Source: Frigoriglobus tundricola (GTDB lineage Bacteria > Planctomycetota > Planctomycetia > Gemmatales > Gemmataceae). From it: 64,000 nt of DNA. Below the pieces are notes generated by a model. It was not told the origin of the DNA. It worked only from the letters and a program-made list of their open reading frames with translations, and did no database searches. Positions within the stretch are counted from its first letter, which is position 1. The number at the start of each line of letters is the position of its first letter. The stretch spans positions 3,224,001 through 3,288,000 of the forward strand of contig NZ_CP053452.2 of assembly GCF_013128195.2 (NCBI RefSeq), written 5' to 3'. Shown here one piece after another: positions 47,154-55,503 of this stretch. Made by a program: the position numbers and the translations under genes.

Positions 47154-48752
47154 CTACGGACGTGACATCCCCACGAAGCTGCCGTCGTTCTCGCGCGACA
47201 GCGACCACAGGAAGGCGCCCACGTCCGGGCTGTCGAAATAGAAGCCGACCGAGTTGATCCGCACCCGCGCCTGCGTCGGCAGCGGGCGGTTCCAGGTGCG
47301 GGTCAGCGTCTCGCGGATGTGCTTGCCCAAAATCACGCCGAGTTCCGGTTCCGAGAGCGGCGGGTTCGCCGTCTGCTGCGCGCGTGTCAGCCCCGGCCCG
47401 CTCGTCGGCAGGCCGTCGGAGAACAGGTAGATCGTGTCCAGCCCGCCGGCCCGCAGCGAGAACGCCTTGTCCAGCGCCGCGTACATGTTCGTGTCGTCCT
47501 TGGGCTTCACCTTCAAGAGCGCCGCACTCACCGCCTCCACCGACTTCTCGCCGGCGAACGGCTGCCACTCGCCCGTCCCGAACACCCAGTTCGCCTCGCT
47601 CGAAAACACGATCGCCTGGTACTGCTCCAGTGTCGGGATGCTGCGCATCACCTTGCACACCGTCTCCACGACGAGCGGCCACTTGGTTTCGTCCAGTGAG
47701 CTCAGGTCGCGCTTGCCCATGCTGCCGGACATGTCGACCAGGAACACCGCCCGCTTGCCGGTCATGGCGATGCCCGCGAACCGCGCGTCCGCGTCGCGCT
47801 GGAGCCGGTTGAACTTGTCCGCCAGTTTCGCCTTGTCGCCCTGAAGGTCGACGATGTTGACGTTCGCGTCGTCCACCTTCTTGCTGAGGTCCTTGATCTG
47901 CGCCTGGGCGGCCGCGAGTTGCTCACCGGTCTTGGCCGCGCCGGTTTTCGCGCTCGCCACCTCCTCGGCCGCCGCTTTGGCCGCGGCCTTCGCCGCCGCG
48001 AGTTCCTCCGCGGCGGCCTTCGCCGCCGCTTTCGCCGCGGCGAGTTGTGCGTCGAAGTCTTTCTGCGCGGCACGCAGGCGCGCGTCCGCGTCGGTCAGCT
48101 CCTTCCGGGTCGCGGCCAGGCGTGTTTCCAGCGCCAGCCGCTCGTCGTCCTTCGCCCGCACCAGCCGCTGAAGGCTGTCCACCTGGGTCGCGCTGGCGGC
48201 GTCCTTCTTGGCGAGCGCGTCGATGTCTTTCTGGCGCTTCTTGAGGAGGTCGTCCGCGTCGGCCGACTGCGCGCGGGCGGTGGCGAGTTCCTTTGCCGTC
48301 GCGTCGCTCTTCTTCTCGGCGGCGTTGAGTGCGAGTTGGGTGGCGTCCAGCCGGGCCTGAGCGACCTTGGCGTCGTCACGCGCCCGCGCCAGCTTGGCGG
48401 CGGTCTCTTCCCGCTCGGTCCGGGCGAGTTTGAGCTGCTCGGACGCGGTCCGCGCCTCGTCGGTGAGTCTGAGGCGGACCCCTTCGAGTTCGGTGACGCG
48501 GGCCGCGAGCGTCCCGCGCTCCTGGACCTCACCGGTCAGTTGGAGGCGCGTGGACTCGAGCGACGTGAGCGCCGCGGCGAGGCGCTTGTCCGTGCTTTCG
48601 AGGTCGAGGAGCGCGGTGCGGTTGGCCTGAACCGCGTCCGTTGCCATCCGGCTGTTGAGTAGGAAGAGGAGCGTGACGCACCCGAGCGCGCAGCAGAACA
48701 CGTCCAGCATCCACATGCTGACCAGCGTCGGCGGCTTGTGGCGAACGCGCAT
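47154..48752 (-). CDS. VWA-domain protein with ExbD/MotB-like anchor and long coiled coil
   Basis: The 532-residue protein starts with a single helix LVSMWMLDVFCCALGCVTLLFLL (about 10-32) that carries an Asp at a place like the proton-carrying Asp of ExbD/MotB. About 300 residues of coiled coil (Ala/Lys/Glu-rich, e.g. AKAAAKAAAEELAAAK) follow. The VWA domain near 330-520 has an intact MIDAS: FLVDMSGSMG (DxSxS), then DDTNMYAAL (Thr) and SDGLPTSGP. ATG 48752 has AGGAG about 6 bases upstream. It is the third gene of a minus-strand set after the ExbB-like and Hsp70-like genes. A cell-envelope machine is inferred. Confidence 0.88.
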   Translation of the reverse strand: MRVRHKPPTLVSMWMLDVFCCALGCVTLLFLLNSRMATDAVQANRTALLDLESTDKRLAAALTSLESTRLQLTGEVQERGTLAARVTELEGVRLRLTDEARTASEQLKLARTEREETAAKLARARDDAKVAQARLDATQLALNAAEKKSDATAKELATARAQSADADDLLKKRQKDIDALAKKDAASATQVDSLQRLVRAKDDERLALETRLAATRKELTDADARLRAAQKDFDAQLAAAKAAAKAAAEELAAAKAAAKAAAEEVASAKTGAAKTGEQLAAAQAQIKDLSKKVDDANVNIVDLQGDKAKLADKFNRLQRDADARFAGIAMTGKRAVFLVDMSGSMGKRDLSSLDETKWPLVVETVCKVMRSIPTLEQYQAIVFSSEANWVFGTGEWQPFAGEKSVEAVSAALLKVKPKDDTNMYAALDKAFSLRAGGLDTIYLFSDGLPTSGPGLTRAQQTANPPLSEPELGVILGKHIRETLTRTWNRPLPTQARVRINSVGFYFDSPDVGAFLWSLSRENDGSFVGMSRP

Positions 48753-48766
48753 GGGGCGCTCCTCGG

Positions 48767-49017
48767 TTGGTGTTTGGTGTTCGGTGTTCGGTGTTCGGTG
48801 TTTGGACCCCGAAGGGGTCGGACAACATAGCCCAGGGCAACGCCCTGGGTCGGGTTGTGGGTTTCGTCTTCCAGCCTGAAGGGCTGAGACAACCGGTCGG
48901 CGTGTCGCAGCCCTTCAGGCTGCATCTCACCGCTTTGCCAACCCAGGGCGTTGCCCTGGGCTATGTTGCCCGACCCCTTCGGGGTCAAAAAACCGAAGAC
49001 CAAACACCAAACACCAA
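48767..49017. repeat. Nested inverted repeat between VWA and Hsp70-like genes
   Basis: There are three concentric layers. Outermost is a TTGGTGTTTGGTGTT arm (48767-48781 and 49003-49017). The middle layer is 46-base arms (48805-48850 and 48941-48986, one mismatch) that contain two smaller palindromes, CCCCGAAGGGG and CCCAGGGC-AACGCCCTGGG. Innermost is CAGCCTGAAGGGCTG (48872-48886 and 48908-48922). The modules recur in other gaps of this window, so this is a modular dispersed-repeat family. Confidence 0.85.
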
Positions 49018-49018
49018 C

Positions 49019-50252
49019 TTACGCCATCGACCCGGAACCGGTGGCCGGCTTTCGCACACCCTTCCCGGCGGGGGCCGGCGTCGGGGCGAGCGGGATCGTG
49101 CTGTCCAGGTGGGCGCGGGGCAGTTCGCCGGCGAGCCAGCGCGGTACGAGCGCGGCGGCGGCGGCGGCGAGCGCGTTCGGCGGCAGCACCTCCACCGCGG
49201 TCCCTTCGGGCGTGTTCGCGTGGACGGCGCGCACGAGGCCGGGCAGCCGGCCGGCGGCGTCCGTCAGCCACACCGCCCGCGGCGGTTCCGCCAGCCCGAT
49301 GCCGTTGGTGAAGTCCCGCACGGACTCGCCCGCGAGGCGCGCGCGCGCGCGCAGTGGGCCTCGAACTCCTCCGGCTGCTGGACCACGTCCTGGAACCAGT
49401 GGGCGGTGCGCACGCACAGGCTGCTGCGCTGGCCGGCGCGGGCGCGGTCGAGCGCCTCGTCGAGCTGTTCGAACAGCGCCTGTTCCGCCTCGGCGGAGTC
49501 GCGCGGGTCGCGTCGGCACAGCCGCACGCACCGGTCGGAGATGGCGTCCAGCAGGCGGTCCTTCCACGCCTTCACGTTGAGCCGCGGCCACACGGCCGAG
49601 CCCCCAGCCGCACCCGGTCCGGCTCGACCGACACCAGCGCCGCGGACGCGGCGAACTCGTCCGCGTCGATCACGACGACGGCGCCCGGCCCGTCGGCGGC
49701 GGGCCGCAGCGGCACCACCCAGTCGGCGCCGGCCGGCGCGGCGGGCCTCCCGCTGAGGAGCGAGGCGGCGCGGACGGCCGCGAGCGCGAGCGGGCCGACC
49801 GCGGTGCCCTTCAGCGCCAGCTTGGAGCGGCCGGCGGTGAGAACCACGCGGGCGACCTGCGGCGGGCCGATGTACACGGGCAGCACCAGCGCGGCGGCGT
49901 CCGTCTCGGCCGAAACCGGCCCGCGGAGCTTGTCGAACGTCAGCCCGAGGGCCGTTTCTGCGCTGAACGTGTGTCGGCCGACCTTCCACTCCCGCGCCTG
50001 ACCGAGCGCGGCCAGGAAGTTCGAGCACACGAGGTGCGGCGTCTTGCGGCAGAGCGCGAACCCGCCGCGGCCGACGTCCGGTACGCGCCGGTCGCCGGCG
50101 ATGAAGAGGAGCAGTTCGGCGTCCGGGTCGTCGAGAACGAGGGGGCGCGACTTACTGCCCACGGCCTCCCCGCGCACGCGACTGGCGGTCACGTCGAGGC
50201 CGACCGCACGGGCGCGATCGTGAACGGGGGCGGACTTGCGGGACCAGAGCAT
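49019..50252 (-). pseudogene. Hsp70-like ATPase, two frameshifts
   Basis: Three frames form one actin/Hsp70-fold protein of about 410 residues. The first part starts at ATG 50252, with RAVGLDVTASRVRGEAV (phosphate-1-like) and VVVIDADEFAASAALVSV (phosphate-2-like). The frame breaks in a run of five C's (five G's on the coding strand, 49601-49605) and continues as WPRLNVKAWKDRLLDAISDR and QPEEFEAHCA. It breaks again in an 8-unit GC repeat (49337-49352) and continues as LAGESVRDFTNGIGL and AVWLTDAAGRLPGLVRAV (adenosine motif). Hsp70 helical-lid regions were not seen. It is likely intact in the organism. It sits between the ExbB-like and VWA genes. Confidence 0.78.
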
Positions 50253-50300
50253 CGGAAGTTGCTCGCGGGGGCAAGAAGCTACAAAACGACTGCAAAAACG

Positions 50301-50414
50301 GCCAGGGGTTTGCACCCCCGGCTACGGACGGTCGCCCTTCCAGGGCTTCAGAACAGCGCTCGACCTCAGCCCCGGAGGGGCGATCGGCCGTAGCCGGGGG
50401 CGCAAACCCCTGGC
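50301..50414. repeat. Nested inverted repeat between Hsp70-like and ExbB-like genes
   Basis: Twenty-seven-base arms (50301-50327 and 50388-50414, one mismatch) start GCCAGGGGTTTGC and end GGCTACGG. The 60-base interior has a smaller GC palindrome. It belongs to the same style of nested element as 48767-49017, but with other modules. Confidence 0.8.
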
Positions 50415-50432
50415 ACTTTTGGTATCAGCCGC

Positions 50433-51227
50433 TCACAGATGAGCGGCTTCCGTCGCCGGATCGTACAGCCGCAGGAGCAGGTGCTCCTGGCAGTACTGTT
50501 GGGCGTCGGTCACGAGCGTCTCCTCCGCCCGCTGGAGGGCGTGAATGAAGTACATGACCACGAGGCTCAGGAGCAGCGCCACCAGCGTACAATCGAACGC
50601 GATCTTCAGCTGGTCCTTCGCCTGGTCGGTGAACACCTGGATGTTCGGCGAGTTCGCGCCGAACGCCCCGCCGAGCCCGCGGACCGTGCCGACGAACCCG
50701 ATGGCCGGGACCGCCCACGCGAGGTAGTTCACGGTGGACATGCCGGTGATCAGCCGCGACAGCTCCACGTCCGCCTGGTTGCGGACCACCTCGCTCACGT
50801 CCGCCGCCGATTTACTGATCGCGAACTTCCCCAGCCCCAGGCGGATCATGTTCGCGAGGATGAACGGCCGCCCCGCGGTCACCTGCTCCACTTTTCGCGC
50901 CAGCGGCCGCGCGTCCTCGGGCAGGATCCGGGCGCCCTCCTCCGTGGGCAGCAGGTCCAGGTTGAACGCCCGGCGCTGCCGCCGCACCTCGCGGTACCGG
51001 CTCTGGAGGATGAGGGCCGCCCACACGGCGCAAACGTAGCACAGGACCTGTTCGGGGCCGAGCAGCAGCCGCTTGACGCGGTCCTCGTCCCATTTCGCCC
51101 ACTCTTCGCGTGCCTTGGGGCCGGTGAACACCTCCCAGAACGGGGCCGCCACCGCCGCGACCACGGCGAGCGCGACGACGAGCCACAGCCACTCGCGGGC
51201 CGGTCGGTGGGACGCGGGTATCGACAT
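50433..51227 (-). CDS. MotA/TolQ/ExbB proton channel family protein
   Basis: The 264-residue membrane protein has four helices. The first (EWLWLVVALAVVAAVAAPFWEVF) and the second (VLCYVCAVWAALILQ) come before a soluble loop. The family block NYLAWAVPAIGFVGTVRGLGGAFG precedes helix 3, and helix 4 is CTLVALLLSLVVMYFIHALQ. The Gly-x-x-Gly-Thr signature of MotA/ExbB is present. Such proteins form pentameric ion channels around two ExbD/MotB-like helices. I start at ATG 51227 because the upstream frame to 51422 only translates a palindromic repeat. It is first in a minus-strand set. Confidence 0.88.
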   Translation of the reverse strand: MSIPASHRPAREWLWLVVALAVVAAVAAPFWEVFTGPKAREEWAKWDEDRVKRLLLGPEQVLCYVCAVWAALILQSRYREVRRQRRAFNLDLLPTEEGARILPEDARPLARKVEQVTAGRPFILANMIRLGLGKFAISKSAADVSEVVRNQADVELSRLITGMSTVNYLAWAVPAIGFVGTVRGLGGAFGANSPNIQVFTDQAKDQLKIAFDCTLVALLLSLVVMYFIHALQRAEETLVTDAQQYCQEHLLLRLYDPATEAAHL

Positions 51228-51349: not shown

Positions 51350-51524
51350 GCCTCCAACCGGACCGTGATCCGTGCGTCCGGGCCAATAGAGTTATTGTCC
51401 GCACCGAAGTGCCGCGCAGCAAGCGCGTAGCGCCGCGATGTCGGGACCGAGCTTCGTTAGCGCGAAAACGGGTGCGGGTGTGGTAAGCTGGGCACCTCGT
51501 TCGCGCCCACCACAGGAGGCCCCC

Positions 51525-52784
51525 GTGCGCTCTCTATTCGCCGCGATCGCGATTATCTTTGCCGCCCCCGCCGACGCCGCGGACCTCCCGAAGTTCAAGG
51601 CCCAGGAAATCGACACGGGCCTGAAAATCGGCTACGCCGTGATCGTGACGGACATCGACGGCGACAAGAAGCCGGACCTCGTGGTGGTCGATCAGCACAA
51701 AGTGGTGTGGTACCGGAACCCCGGTACGCGGGACGGGGAGTGGACGAAGTTCACGGTCCTCGACGGCAAGACCCGGCCGGACAACGTGTGCGTCGCCGCC
51801 ATCGACATCGACGGCGACGGTCTACCGGAACTGGTTCTCGGCGCCGCCTGGAAGCCGTTCGACACGACCCACGCGGCGCAACTCGTGTGGCTGAAACGCA
51901 ACACGGACGCGACCCAAGAATGGACGGTGCACGAGCTGCCCTGCGACGAGCCGGCGGTTCACCGCGTCCGCGTGTTCGACATCGACGGCAGCGGCAAGCC
52001 GGCGATCGTCCACGTCCCGCTGATGGGTCGCGGTTCGAGCGCGAAGGGCAACTGGACCGACGGCAAGCCCGTGCGCATCGTTGCACTGAAAGTGCCCGCG
52101 AAGGACCCGGAGAAGAAGGAGAACTGGAAGGCGCAGGTGCTGTCGGACGAGCTGAACGTCACGCACAACTTCTGTCCCGGTCCCGGGGGCGGCTTCGCAC
52201 GCAAGGGCCGTTCTGTGCTCGTCGGCAGTTACGAAGGCGTGAGCACGATCTACCCCGAAGGCCCGGCCGACAAGTGGACGACGAAGTTGATGCACGCGGC
52301 GAACCAGAGCAACCCCAAGGGCAGCCGTGGGGCGAGCGAGATCAAGCTCTCCGGCGACAACCGCGGGGTGATCGCCACGATCGAGCCGTGGCACGGAAAC
52401 CAGGTGGTCGTTTACACGCCCGGAAAGCCGAACCCGGAGAGCGCGTTCTCGCTCGACCGCCACGTGATCGACGAGCAGCTCCGCTGGGGGCACGCGGCCT
52501 GGTTCGCGGACCTCGACGGCGACGGCGTGGACGAACTCCTTATCGGCGTGCGCGACGACCCGAACCCGAAGCTCGGCGACACGTTCAAGGAGCGCCGCGG
52601 CGTTCGCGTCTACAAATGCACCGACGGCAAAGGCGCCCGGTGGGAGCGAACCATTCTCGACGACGGAGGCGTGGCGGTAGAGGACCTGACCGCGGCCGAT
52701 CTCGACGGCGACGGCAAGATCGACATCATCGCCGTCGGGCGGCAGACCGGGAACTGCAAGATCTACTGGAACCAGGGAAAGTGA
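51525..52784 (+). CDS. Secreted FG-GAP/VCBS repeat protein
   Basis: The 419-residue protein starts at GTG 51525 (AGGAGG 6 bases upstream) with a signal peptide VRSLFAAIAIIFAAPADAAD. The mature protein is a beta-propeller made of FG-GAP/VCBS repeats: VTDIDGDKKPDLVVVD, AIDIDGDGLPELVLGAA, FDIDGSGKPAIVHV, FADLDGDGVDELLIG and ADLDGDGKIDIIAVG. The repeats carry calcium-type DxDGDG loops. Planctomycetes have many such extracellular or periplasmic proteins with unknown ligands. It is divergent from the ExbB-like gene and convergent with the kinase-WD40 gene; no operon partner. Confidence 0.9.
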   Translation: MRSLFAAIAIIFAAPADAADLPKFKAQEIDTGLKIGYAVIVTDIDGDKKPDLVVVDQHKVVWYRNPGTRDGEWTKFTVLDGKTRPDNVCVAAIDIDGDGLPELVLGAAWKPFDTTHAAQLVWLKRNTDATQEWTVHELPCDEPAVHRVRVFDIDGSGKPAIVHVPLMGRGSSAKGNWTDGKPVRIVALKVPAKDPEKKENWKAQVLSDELNVTHNFCPGPGGGFARKGRSVLVGSYEGVSTIYPEGPADKWTTKLMHAANQSNPKGSRGASEIKLSGDNRGVIATIEPWHGNQVVVYTPGKPNPESAFSLDRHVIDEQLRWGHAAWFADLDGDGVDELLIGVRDDPNPKLGDTFKERRGVRVYKCTDGKGARWERTILDDGGVAVEDLTAADLDGDGKIDIIAVGRQTGNCKIYWNQGK

Positions 52785-52886: not shown

Positions 52887-55145
<2,259 letters not shown>

Positions 55146-55503
55146 TTCGAGAACCTTAACGAAGTAAGGGCGACTGACGCGCAGTTTCGGAAACGGTAGC
55201 ACACGGCACGCGCCGTTGAATTCGCGATCCGTTGCAAACCCTCCTATTGCCGGACCGAAATTCTCGAGTAGCGAGAATTGCATTGAGACTCGCACATGAG
55301 GTTTCCGCCCGAGTGAACACTGGGGCGCCCGTGCGGCTCTCATGGGTAAACCGGCCCTGCCCTCCCCGCCGACCGACGGGCCGGCCGGGTCACTTGAATC
55401 GGCGCCGGTGTGCCCGTGTCCGCACCGGCACGAGTGCCGCGAACTCGGGACGCCACAAACGCGACGGCCCGCCGGATCACTCCGGCGGGCCGCGCACTTG
55501 GCA
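55146..55503. other. Gap between the kinase-WD40 and RbfA-like genes
   Basis: No supported gene was found. The end near 55503 holds the terminator at 55465-55492. The end near 55146-55250 should hold the kinase promoter; no clear boxes were found. Confidence 0.5.
55465..55492 (-). terminator. Hairpin terminator after the RbfA-like gene
   Basis: A perfect 12-bp stem (CGGCCCGCCGGA at 55465-55476 with 55481-55492) has a TCAC loop, 11 bases past the stop at 55504 on the minus strand. Confidence 0.75.

What the first reader, a model, noticed from the sequence alone, without database searches (positions are those of the whole stretch)
47154..51227. Three-gene set: ExbB/MotA-like channel, Hsp70-like ATPase and VWA protein with an ExbD/MotB-like anchor
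Sequence shows three minus-strand genes in order: a MotA/TolQ/ExbB-type channel, an Hsp70/actin-fold protein, and a protein with one helix carrying an Asp (MWMLDVFCC), a 300-residue coiled coil and an intact VWA MIDAS. Known families: ExbB/ExbD, MotA/MotB and ZorA/ZorB all join a channel to an anchor with a proton-carrying Asp. Inference: the VWA protein replaces ExbD/MotB, and the Hsp70-like protein controls assembly or force. I know of no described system with these three parts. It may be an envelope motor or a defence system of the Zorya kind.
Basis: partly seen in the sequence, partly recalled or inferred. Interest (0 to 1): 0.85.

Follow-up and report, generated by a model that had tools for sequence, protein, structure and literature searches.

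The report
Hsp70-like partner of a membrane motor
Three neighbouring genes, present in nearly all sampled relatives of this Gemmata-type bacterium, look like a proton-driven membrane motor whose long arm ends in a metal-dependent binding domain, together with a chaperone-like protein that seems to have lost its ATP site and that we did not find described as part of such motors.

Summary
Channel: MotA/TolQ/ExbB family. Last gene: one membrane helix with an Asp present in every copy measured, a coiled coil, and a VWA domain with conserved MIDAS. Middle gene: a confident AlphaFold model of an intact relative (pLDDT 91.6) matches Hsp70 nucleotide-binding domains (Z about 34), but the phosphate-2 and adenosine glycines are lost: a likely pseudo-ATPase without a substrate-binding domain. 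Of 44 sampled genomes of the order 41 have the channel and the same 41 the middle gene; 73 of 80 named loci have it downstream of the channel.

Half of the idea is in print: a 2025 paper (PMC12204202) describes VWA proteins with an Asp-bearing transpore helix beside TolQ without TolR/ExbD. Its main text does not mention Hsp70. I found the Hsp70-like gene, in part fused to an FHA domain, in other planctomycete families and in 10 of 20 gammaproteobacterial sets (2 weak hits).

Best reading: a 5:2 proton motor moving a VWA-tipped arm, about twice as long in the Gemmata order, with a cytosolic Hsp70-like protein controlling assembly or engagement. Function is inferred. Zorya-type defence is unlikely. 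New variant of a known kind.

The parts
50433..51227 (-). Channel gene, MotA/TolQ/ExbB family, 264 aa
   Evidence: ORF; Pfam PF01618 38.6 bits, residues 126-242; homologues (E 2e-50 or better) in 41 of 44 genomes of the order
50685..50687 (-). Codon of Thr181 of the channel, pore-side Thr candidate
   Evidence: invariant in 30 of 30 (A3) and 14 of 14 diverse homologues (A4); pore role inferred from ExbB/TolQ/MotA
50586..50588 (-). Codon of Thr214 of the channel, pore-side Thr candidate
   Evidence: invariant in 30 of 30 (A3) and 14 of 14 (A4)
49019..50252 (-). Middle gene, Hsp70-NBD-like probable pseudo-ATPase; reading frame broken twice in this window
   Evidence: three frames: 50252-49602, 49593-49348, 49339-49046; intact in relatives; Hsp70 profile and fold matches on relatives
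47154..48752 (-). Arm gene: transpore-type helix, coiled coil, VWA domain, 532 aa
   Evidence: ORF; Pfam VWA_2 36.3 bits; AlphaFold model
48702..48704 (-). Codon of Asp17 in the membrane helix
   Evidence: invariant in 26 of 26 and 39 of 39; 60 of 60 complete named proteins; 45 of 45 distant homologues
47787..48650 (-). Coiled-coil arm, residues about 35-322
   Evidence: helices 13-240 and 289-322 in the model, 241-288 low confidence; Asp-to-MIDAS spacing 323 residues
47166..47753 (-). VWA domain, residues about 334-529
   Evidence: Pfam; model and VIA-align match Z 18.5 to a solved VWA
47721..47735 (-). MIDAS DxSxS motif, residues 340-344
   Evidence: D340, S342, S344 invariant in A2 (26) and A6 (14)

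Best explanation
The genes encode a trans-envelope machine of the proton-driven 5:2 rotary-motor kind. Shown by sequence: a MotA/TolQ/ExbB-type channel, a partner protein with a single helix carrying an invariant Asp followed by a long coil and a metal-site VWA head, and a soluble Hsp70-NBD-fold protein. Inferred: a pentamer of the channel surrounds two helices of the VWA protein; ion passage past Asp17 and the conserved Thr sites turns them; the coil carries the motion into the periplasm, where two VWA heads grip a partner in the outer membrane, wall or bound cargo through MIDAS. Inferred, weaker: the Hsp70-like protein no longer hydrolyses ATP, sits on the cytosolic face (on the channel loop or the basic N-terminal tail of the VWA protein) and acts as assembly factor or clutch; the FHA domain fused to it in part of the relatives reads a phosphothreonine signal. 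Gemmata-order members have an arm about twice as long as the relatives sampled, which fits their enlarged periplasm. In this strain the middle gene is broken, by sequencing error or by recent loss.
For: Family and motif evidence. Asp in 60/60 and 45/45. Gene order channel, Hsp70-like, VWA: middle gene downstream of the channel on the same strand in 73 of 80 named loci, VWA found in 66 of 80; of the 7 and 14 misses all but 1 and 2 sit at contig ends. 41 of 44 genomes of the order have the channel and the same 41 have the middle gene. No ExbD hit at the locus. Same three-part set in distant planctomycete families f50 (3 genomes) and f103 (1 genome, middle gene at E 3.7e-7) with two VWA genes and in Gammaproteobacteria. 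Published models of the channel/transpore-VWA part (PMC12204202). Hsp70 fold with the first Gly of phosphate-2 GGGT turned to Asp in 70 of 70 complete Gemmatales proteins. FHA on 10 of 52 Gemmatales proteins, on L197 and on 3 of 6 gammaproteobacterial proteins scanned. One locus, L183, has channel and middle protein in one ORF. Asp-to-MIDAS medians 291 against 144 residues. Enlarged periplasm: PMC5394234, passages read.
Against: No complex was modelled and no experiment on these genes was found. The channel profile does not reach significance against solved MotA/TolQ structures (best E 0.086). In 10 of 20 gammaproteobacterial genomes no middle gene was found in the stretch fetched around the channel (the rest of those genomes was not searched for it), so the motor there may do without it. 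G039 has channel and middle gene in different places; G006/L110 shows no VWA gene in 4.6 kb after the middle gene. The single fused ORF may be a lost stop or an assembly error. ATP loss rests on motifs in an alignment: the Asp of phosphate 1 is still Asp in 53 and Glu in 10 of 70, that of phosphate 2 Asp in 56 and Glu in 14, and L197 reads SLGHGT; the catalytic-Lys column aligned poorly even for true Hsp70 controls (Lys in 3 of 6).
Confidence: 0.55

Rival explanations
1. The channel and VWA protein are the motor, and the Hsp70-like protein is only a dedicated assembly chaperone or scaffold with no role in the running machine.
For: Not found beside the channel in 10 of 20 gammaproteobacterial genomes, most of which show the VWA pair. 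Structural neighbours near the top include Ssz1 of the ribosome-associated complex; that Ssz1 does not hydrolyse ATP is recalled, not from a call.
Against: Present in all 41 order genomes that have the channel; FHA fusions suggest a signal input.
Confidence: 0.25
2. Anti-phage defence motor of the Zorya kind: phage contact is sensed through the arm and ion flow triggers a cytosolic effector.
For: Weak ZorA profile hit, E 0.0019; same motor superfamily; ZorAB is a 5:2 complex (PMC11890865, start of abstract in a search listing).
Against: PADLOC hits on the 7 flanking window proteins scanned are generic kinase and HEAT matches; Pfam shows no nuclease or helicase on the 6 of them scanned; near-universal in the sampled order; the largest flank cluster with downstream members covers 5 of 79 loci.
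Confidence: 0.06
3. No motor: the VWA protein is a membrane-anchored adhesin or sensor, and the channel only a leak gated by its state.
For: VWA/MIDAS domains are commonly adhesive (recalled). For the SHLS-type vWA transducers PMC12204202 states that no deletion phenotype is reported, and for the TPH-vWA family it gives models only.
Against: Invariant Asp and Thr sites and close linkage to the channel in the place of an ExbD-type partner.
Confidence: 0.14

Closest known systems
TolQ plus transpore-helix vWA proteins (PMC12204202, 2025)
   Same: TolQ-like channel, no ExbD/TolR, TM helix with conserved Asp, VWA head
   Different: Published sets are predominantly pairs of vWA genes in Proteobacteria and Verrucomicrobia; here one vWA gene with an arm about twice as long as in the relatives I measured; Hsp70 and DnaK are not named in the paper's main text
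TonB/TolA-like vWA transducers with SHLS helix (PMC12204202)
   Same: Membrane-tethered vWA protein near a tolQ-like gene; that family includes Planctomycetes
   Different: Within the PVC group those often sit with a pair of tolR-like genes and are modelled at the edge of the motor; here there is no ExbD hit at the locus and the helix bears the Asp
ExbB-ExbD / TolQ-TolR / MotA-MotB
   Same: Channel family PF01618 and Asp-helix partner
   Different: Partner has coiled coil plus VWA instead of the ExbD/TolR fold or an OmpA-type wall-binding domain; Hsp70-like gene added
ZorA-ZorB of Zorya defence
   Same: MotA-type channel joined to an anchored partner
   Different: ZorA match only E 0.0019; no ZorB hit; no ZorC/ZorD hit among the flanking proteins scanned; not sporadic
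Hsp70 / DnaK, and Ssz1
   Same: Nucleotide-binding-domain fold, Z about 34-35 over about 340 residues
   Different: No substrate-binding domain; phosphate-2 and adenosine glycines lost; FHA fusion in part of the relatives
PilM-PilN and similar actin-fold/bitopic pairs (recalled)
   Same: Cytosolic actin-fold protein beside a single-helix protein with periplasmic coil
   Different: No ion channel there; an analogy only, not tested

Membership tests
MotA/TolQ/ExbB channel family | PF01618 match above curated cut-off | tested here: met
   38.6 bits vs 22.9
MotA/TolQ/ExbB channel family | Conserved Thr/polar sites in the two pore helices | tested here: met
   T181 and T214 invariant in 30/30 and 14/14
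MotA/TolQ/ExbB channel family | Pentameric assembly around two partner helices | not testable with these tools
   no complex prediction available
TPH-vWA motor family (PMC12204202) | Membrane helix with conserved Asp joined to a vWA domain | tested here: met
TPH-vWA motor family (PMC12204202) | Next to a tolQ-like gene without tolR/exbD | tested here: met
   ExbD profile scanned only in the window's own genome
TPH-vWA motor family (PMC12204202) | vWA genes predominantly in heterologous pairs (a tendency, not a requirement, in the paper) | tested here: not met
   one VWA hit in each of the 33 same-order loci that show any (L016 repeats the place of L068); pairs in f50, f103 and in 17 of 20 gammaproteobacterial genomes
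TPH-vWA motor family (PMC12204202) | Sequence relationship to the published Idiomarina proteins | not tested
   those sequences were not fetched; the comparison is with unnamed gammaproteobacterial genomes
ExbD/TolR | PF02472 match | tested here: not met
   VWA protein has no such hit; none at the locus in the genome scan
Hsp70 chaperones | NBD fold | tested here: met
Hsp70 chaperones | ATP motifs (phosphate 2 GGGT, adenosine GGS) | tested here: not met
   first Gly of GGGT is Asp in 70/70 and GGS is replaced; Hsp70 controls keep GGGT in 6/6 and GG in 6/6
Hsp70 chaperones | C-terminal substrate-binding domain | tested here: not met
   modelled protein has 411 residues and ends soon after the NBD; where longer relatives have a recognised extra domain it is FHA
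Zorya | ZorA and ZorB profiles | tested here: not met
   ZorA2 E 0.0019 only, no ZorB
Zorya | ZorC and ZorD/ZorE beside them | tested here: not met
   none among the 7 flanking window proteins scanned

The most novel reading that the evidence does not exclude
An Hsp70-fold pseudo-ATPase, perhaps ancestrally fused to an FHA domain, is a phosphorylation-read clutch or assembly switch of a class of proton-driven VWA-arm motors found from Gammaproteobacteria to Planctomycetes. In the Gemmata order the longer arm works across the enlarged periplasm and may supply force for the still unexplained, CCCP-sensitive entry of macromolecules through the outer membrane.
Probability: 0.2. Interest if true: 0.85.

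Novelty: new variant of a known kind. Interest (0 to 1): 0.62.

Why it matters
It adds a component, an Hsp70-fold protein in part fused to a phospho-reader, to a motor class described in 2025, and shows the association in two phyla. If the protein is a clutch or assembly switch, it would be a regulatory principle not known to me for 5:2 motors. For the Gemmata order it offers a concrete gene set to test in the open question of how proton motive force is passed across a very wide periplasm; dextran entry in G. obscuriglobus is abolished by CCCP and its outer-membrane step is unexplained (PMC5394234, passages).

Tried and rejected
Pfam scans of the window's middle gene fragments found no Hsp70; profiles of relatives did, and single relatives only in part: 4 of 24 at E up to 1, 7 of 52 at E up to 0.01, best 1.1e-5. 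A profile of the more distant middle proteins (A9) hits FHA domains first and Hsp70s only weakly (best DnaK E 0.0019). A phylum scan with the Gemmatales middle profile mostly returned ordinary Hsp70s (22 of 392 genomes at 1e-15; of the 9 loci inspected, L188-L196, only L189 and L191 carry the set). Five further channel relatives read closely (L093, L095, L097, L100, L103) show no middle or VWA gene and have single-helix, ExbD-like proteins beside them by eye; the listing shows no channel neighbourhood for L200, L202, L204, L205, L208, L209, L210 and L213, which I did not pursue. Flank clustering found no widely shared downstream partner; ORF calling there is noisy and includes antisense shadows. 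A divergent FG-GAP gene upstream is shared within the genus. Kaur et al. 2020 (PMC7159879, passages) has vWA and Hsp70 in conflict systems but none of the terms MotA, ExbB, TolQ. Literature searches for the combination gave PMC12204202 as the only relevant paper; the library lacks most subscription papers and no supplement could be read. A chance explanation for the Asp was dropped after 60/60 and 45/45. The 45 distant VWA rows were picked by the A6 profile and located by a motif (Asp, Gly seven on), so that count leans towards the motif; the 60 were also read by eye in the printed N-termini.

Rows dropped before counts: of the 66 named VWA genes 6 cut by contig ends, leaving 60; of the 73 named middle genes 3 cut, leaving 70. 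In one search a fourth query, MIDb, was translated in a wrong frame of the broken gene; its hits are shadows and were ignored. One search uses the best 80 of 412 relatives, so it leans to close relatives. The 20 gammaproteobacterial genomes are those with channel E of 2e-63 or better among the 25 hits in 274 sampled; the 5 weaker ones (L240-L244) have another gene setting (by eye) and were left out. Middle-gene counts there include two weak hits (L235 8e-6, not listed; L239 7e-6). The absence of the middle gene in G016, G020 and G032 rests on a single-sequence search.
Full report
What is there. The window lies in a 9.86 Mb, two-contig genome. Its nearest named relatives are Gemmata, Limnoglobus, Zavarzinella, Fimbriiglobus and other Gemmataceae. 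On the minus strand lie a 264-aa channel gene (50433-51227), a middle gene, and a 532-aa VWA gene (47154-48752). The channel scores 38.6 bits against Pfam MotA_ExbB (cut-off 22.9) and the last gene 36.3 bits against VWA_2 (cut-off 27). The middle gene is not a single open frame here: against intact relatives it matches in three frames, 50252-49602, 49593-49348 and 49339-49046, while the channel, the VWA gene and the upstream FG-GAP gene match in one frame each. The pieces after the breaks are still 66.7 to 90.2% identical to the nine same-genus relatives compared, so the breaks are either sequencing errors or very recent; I cannot tell which.

Conservation. A search of 59 genomes (the window's own included) gave the channel at E 2e-50 or better in 41 of the 44 genomes of the same order; the 3 without it are two incomplete genomes (68% and 75%) and one complete one, G032, whose only hit is a distant paralogue. 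The middle gene is in the same 41: 38 by single-sequence search and G040, G041, G042 by profile. In G003, G023 and G039 it lies on another contig than the channel. In a scan of named genomes 412 relatives of the channel were found and the best 80 kept. In 73 of these 80 the middle gene lies downstream on the same strand (in L156 with a gap of about 0.9 kb) and in 66 the VWA gene is found. Of the 7 loci without a middle gene six end within 700 bases of the channel; L131 has 2.2 kb more without one (by its length it is the same contig as that of G023, whose middle gene is on another contig). Of the 14 without a VWA gene, L110 and L131 are not explained by a contig end. Titles of two loci (L134 Bacteroidales, L178 Kuenenia) do not fit; I take these as binning or naming errors, not tested.

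The arm protein. Asp17 and Gly24 in the helix and the MIDAS residues D340, S342, S344 are invariant in 26 of 26, 39 of 39 and 14 of 14 aligned homologues. All 60 complete VWA proteins from named loci show the Asp. AlphaFold predicts helix 13-240, an uncertain stretch 241-288, helix 289-322 and a VWA domain (mean pLDDT 79.7, pTM 0.46); the domain matches solved VWA structures (best Z 18.5, rmsd 2.4, 163 residues). From Asp to MIDAS there are 323 residues in the window, a median of 291 (180-375) in the 60 named proteins, and a median of 144 (132-306) in 45 proteins of other planctomycete families and of Gammaproteobacteria; the 306 is L212, so a long arm is not unique to the order. As one helix that would be about 44 against 22 nm (1.5 Angstrom per residue, my arithmetic).

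The channel. T181, T214, P174, W171 and other residues are invariant in 30 of 30 and 14 of 14 sequences. Against solved structures the profile finds only MotA, PomA and TolQ, none significant (best E 0.086). The genome has six PF01618 hits and four ExbD hits; the latter lie beside two other channel genes, none near this one. Three more channel genes also have no ExbD hit beside them, so this is weak evidence taken alone.

The middle protein. A profile of 24 intact relatives hits Hsp70s in the PDB (best E 6e-13). Of 52 single proteins 7 match Pfam HSP70 (E up to 0.01, best 1.1e-5) and 10 an FHA domain (best 1.1e-15). The AlphaFold model of an intact relative (L114, 52-row alignment, pLDDT 91.6, pTM 0.89) finds Hsp70 family members in the 50 Foldseek rows shown (best E 6e-20) and in VIA-align (Z 35.0 to 33.5 in the 50 rows, about 340 residues at 2.3 to 3.0 Angstrom for most, some rows worse; Ssz1 entries are among the first). 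In an alignment with six Hsp70s of the phylum, phosphate-2 DLGGGT, kept in 6 of 6 controls, reads mostly xDxDxxA, with Asp for the first Gly in 70 of 70 complete Gemmatales proteins; the adenosine GGS is replaced too. Some positions persist: the phosphate-1 Asp in 53 of 70 (Glu in 10), the phosphate-2 Asp in 56 (Glu in 14), the Pro of the adenosine motif in 70; and L197 reads SLGHGT. The Lys column is not usable, as only 3 of 6 controls had Lys there. I conclude an Hsp70-NBD-fold protein, probably not an ATPase, without a substrate-binding domain.

Beyond the order. A phylum sample of 392 genomes searched with the middle profile and with the channel profile (64 of 392 at 1e-20) led to the same set in family f50 (G326, G290, G247), with two VWA genes and upstream a large protein that by eye has PEGA and SUMF1-like parts in L217, and in f103 (G405) with two VWA genes and a weak middle match (3.7e-7). 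G366 (L197) has an Hsp70-FHA protein (Pfam HSP70 3.8e-9, FHA 5.2e-22) next to a channel and a helix protein without VWA. One named locus, L186, is a gammaproteobacterial MAG; its genome has a middle gene followed by two VWA genes on another contig. In a sample of 274 genomes of that class 25 have a channel at 1e-25. In the 20 best, 17 show two VWA genes (two more are cut by contig ends, L233 shows none), and 10 show a middle gene, two of them weakly; in the other 10 none was found in the stretch fetched. Of six gammaproteobacterial middle proteins scanned, three have FHA and one matches HSP70 below the curated cut-off (E 5.7e-4). PEGA plus SUMF1 proteins (L221, L231), a protein with weak TPR matches (L225) and a protein kinase (L231) lie in these loci.

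What is known. 'Origin and Evolution of Bacterial Periplasmic Force Transducers' (PMC12204202; section 8 read in full; [quoted passage not shown] My f50, f103 and gammaproteobacterial sets match that layout apart from the middle gene. The words Hsp70 and DnaK do not occur in its main text; its supplement was not read. Full-text searches for the combination gave no other relevant paper. So the motor part is known in kind; the Hsp70-like member, its FHA fusions, its occurrence in two phyla and the long single arm of the Gemmata order are what this work adds.

How it probably works. I commit to a proton-driven 5:2 motor whose arm is the VWA protein, with the Hsp70-like protein as a cytosolic assembly or engagement factor. 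The motor part rests on conserved sites and on published models of similar sets; the role of the Hsp70-like protein rests on gene order, one shared ORF (L183, possibly an artefact), its soluble fold and FHA fusions, and is the weaker half. The link to macromolecule uptake in Gemmata is speculation: in PMC5394234 (passages) 23% of 1,065 G. obscuriglobus cells took up dextran and none of 816 CCCP-treated cells; but P. limnophila, of another order (recalled) and not searched here, also takes up dextran, so the set need not be the answer.

Defence. The only motor-type defence hit is ZorA at E 0.0019. The kinase gene upstream (52887-55343) matches PD-T4-6 and other kinase profiles, as protein kinases in general would. 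A trait present in 41 of 44 genomes of an order does not look like a defence system.

Noticed in passing
window 49019-50252: The middle gene lies in three frames, the breaks near a G run and a CG repeat, although the neighbouring genes are intact.
   Followed up: partly
L183:5998-8022: Channel and middle protein in one open frame in Gemmatales bacterium KatS3mg105; natural fusion or lost stop.
   Followed up: partly
L197:3141-8321: Set with two FHA-like proteins (one with a trypsin-like part, by eye), an Hsp70-FHA protein, a channel and an Asp-helix protein without VWA.
   Followed up: partly
L212:824-7920: Two kinase-like genes around a channel and a VWA arm protein of 306-residue spacing, with an FHA/trypsin-like membrane protein (by eye) and no middle gene found.
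   Followed up: no
L103:3438-7781: Second motor-like cluster in a same-genus relative: two proteins with an SFLDLLSCGxGAV helix before a 690-aa channel protein, near an integrase-like and a reverse-transcriptase-like ORF.
   Followed up: no
L240-L244: Gammaproteobacterial channel relatives, some with FHA-like, PP2C-like or Asp-helix proteins nearby (by eye), a possible phospho-regulated sister system.
   Followed up: no
L231:7599-12548, L221:3093-5531: PEGA plus SUMF1 (FGE-sulfatase) proteins upstream of gammaproteobacterial sets, in L231 also a protein kinase (Pfam).
   Followed up: partly
window 51438-52784: Divergent FG-GAP gene beside the channel, conserved in same-genus relatives; might be a periplasmic partner.
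   Followed up: partly
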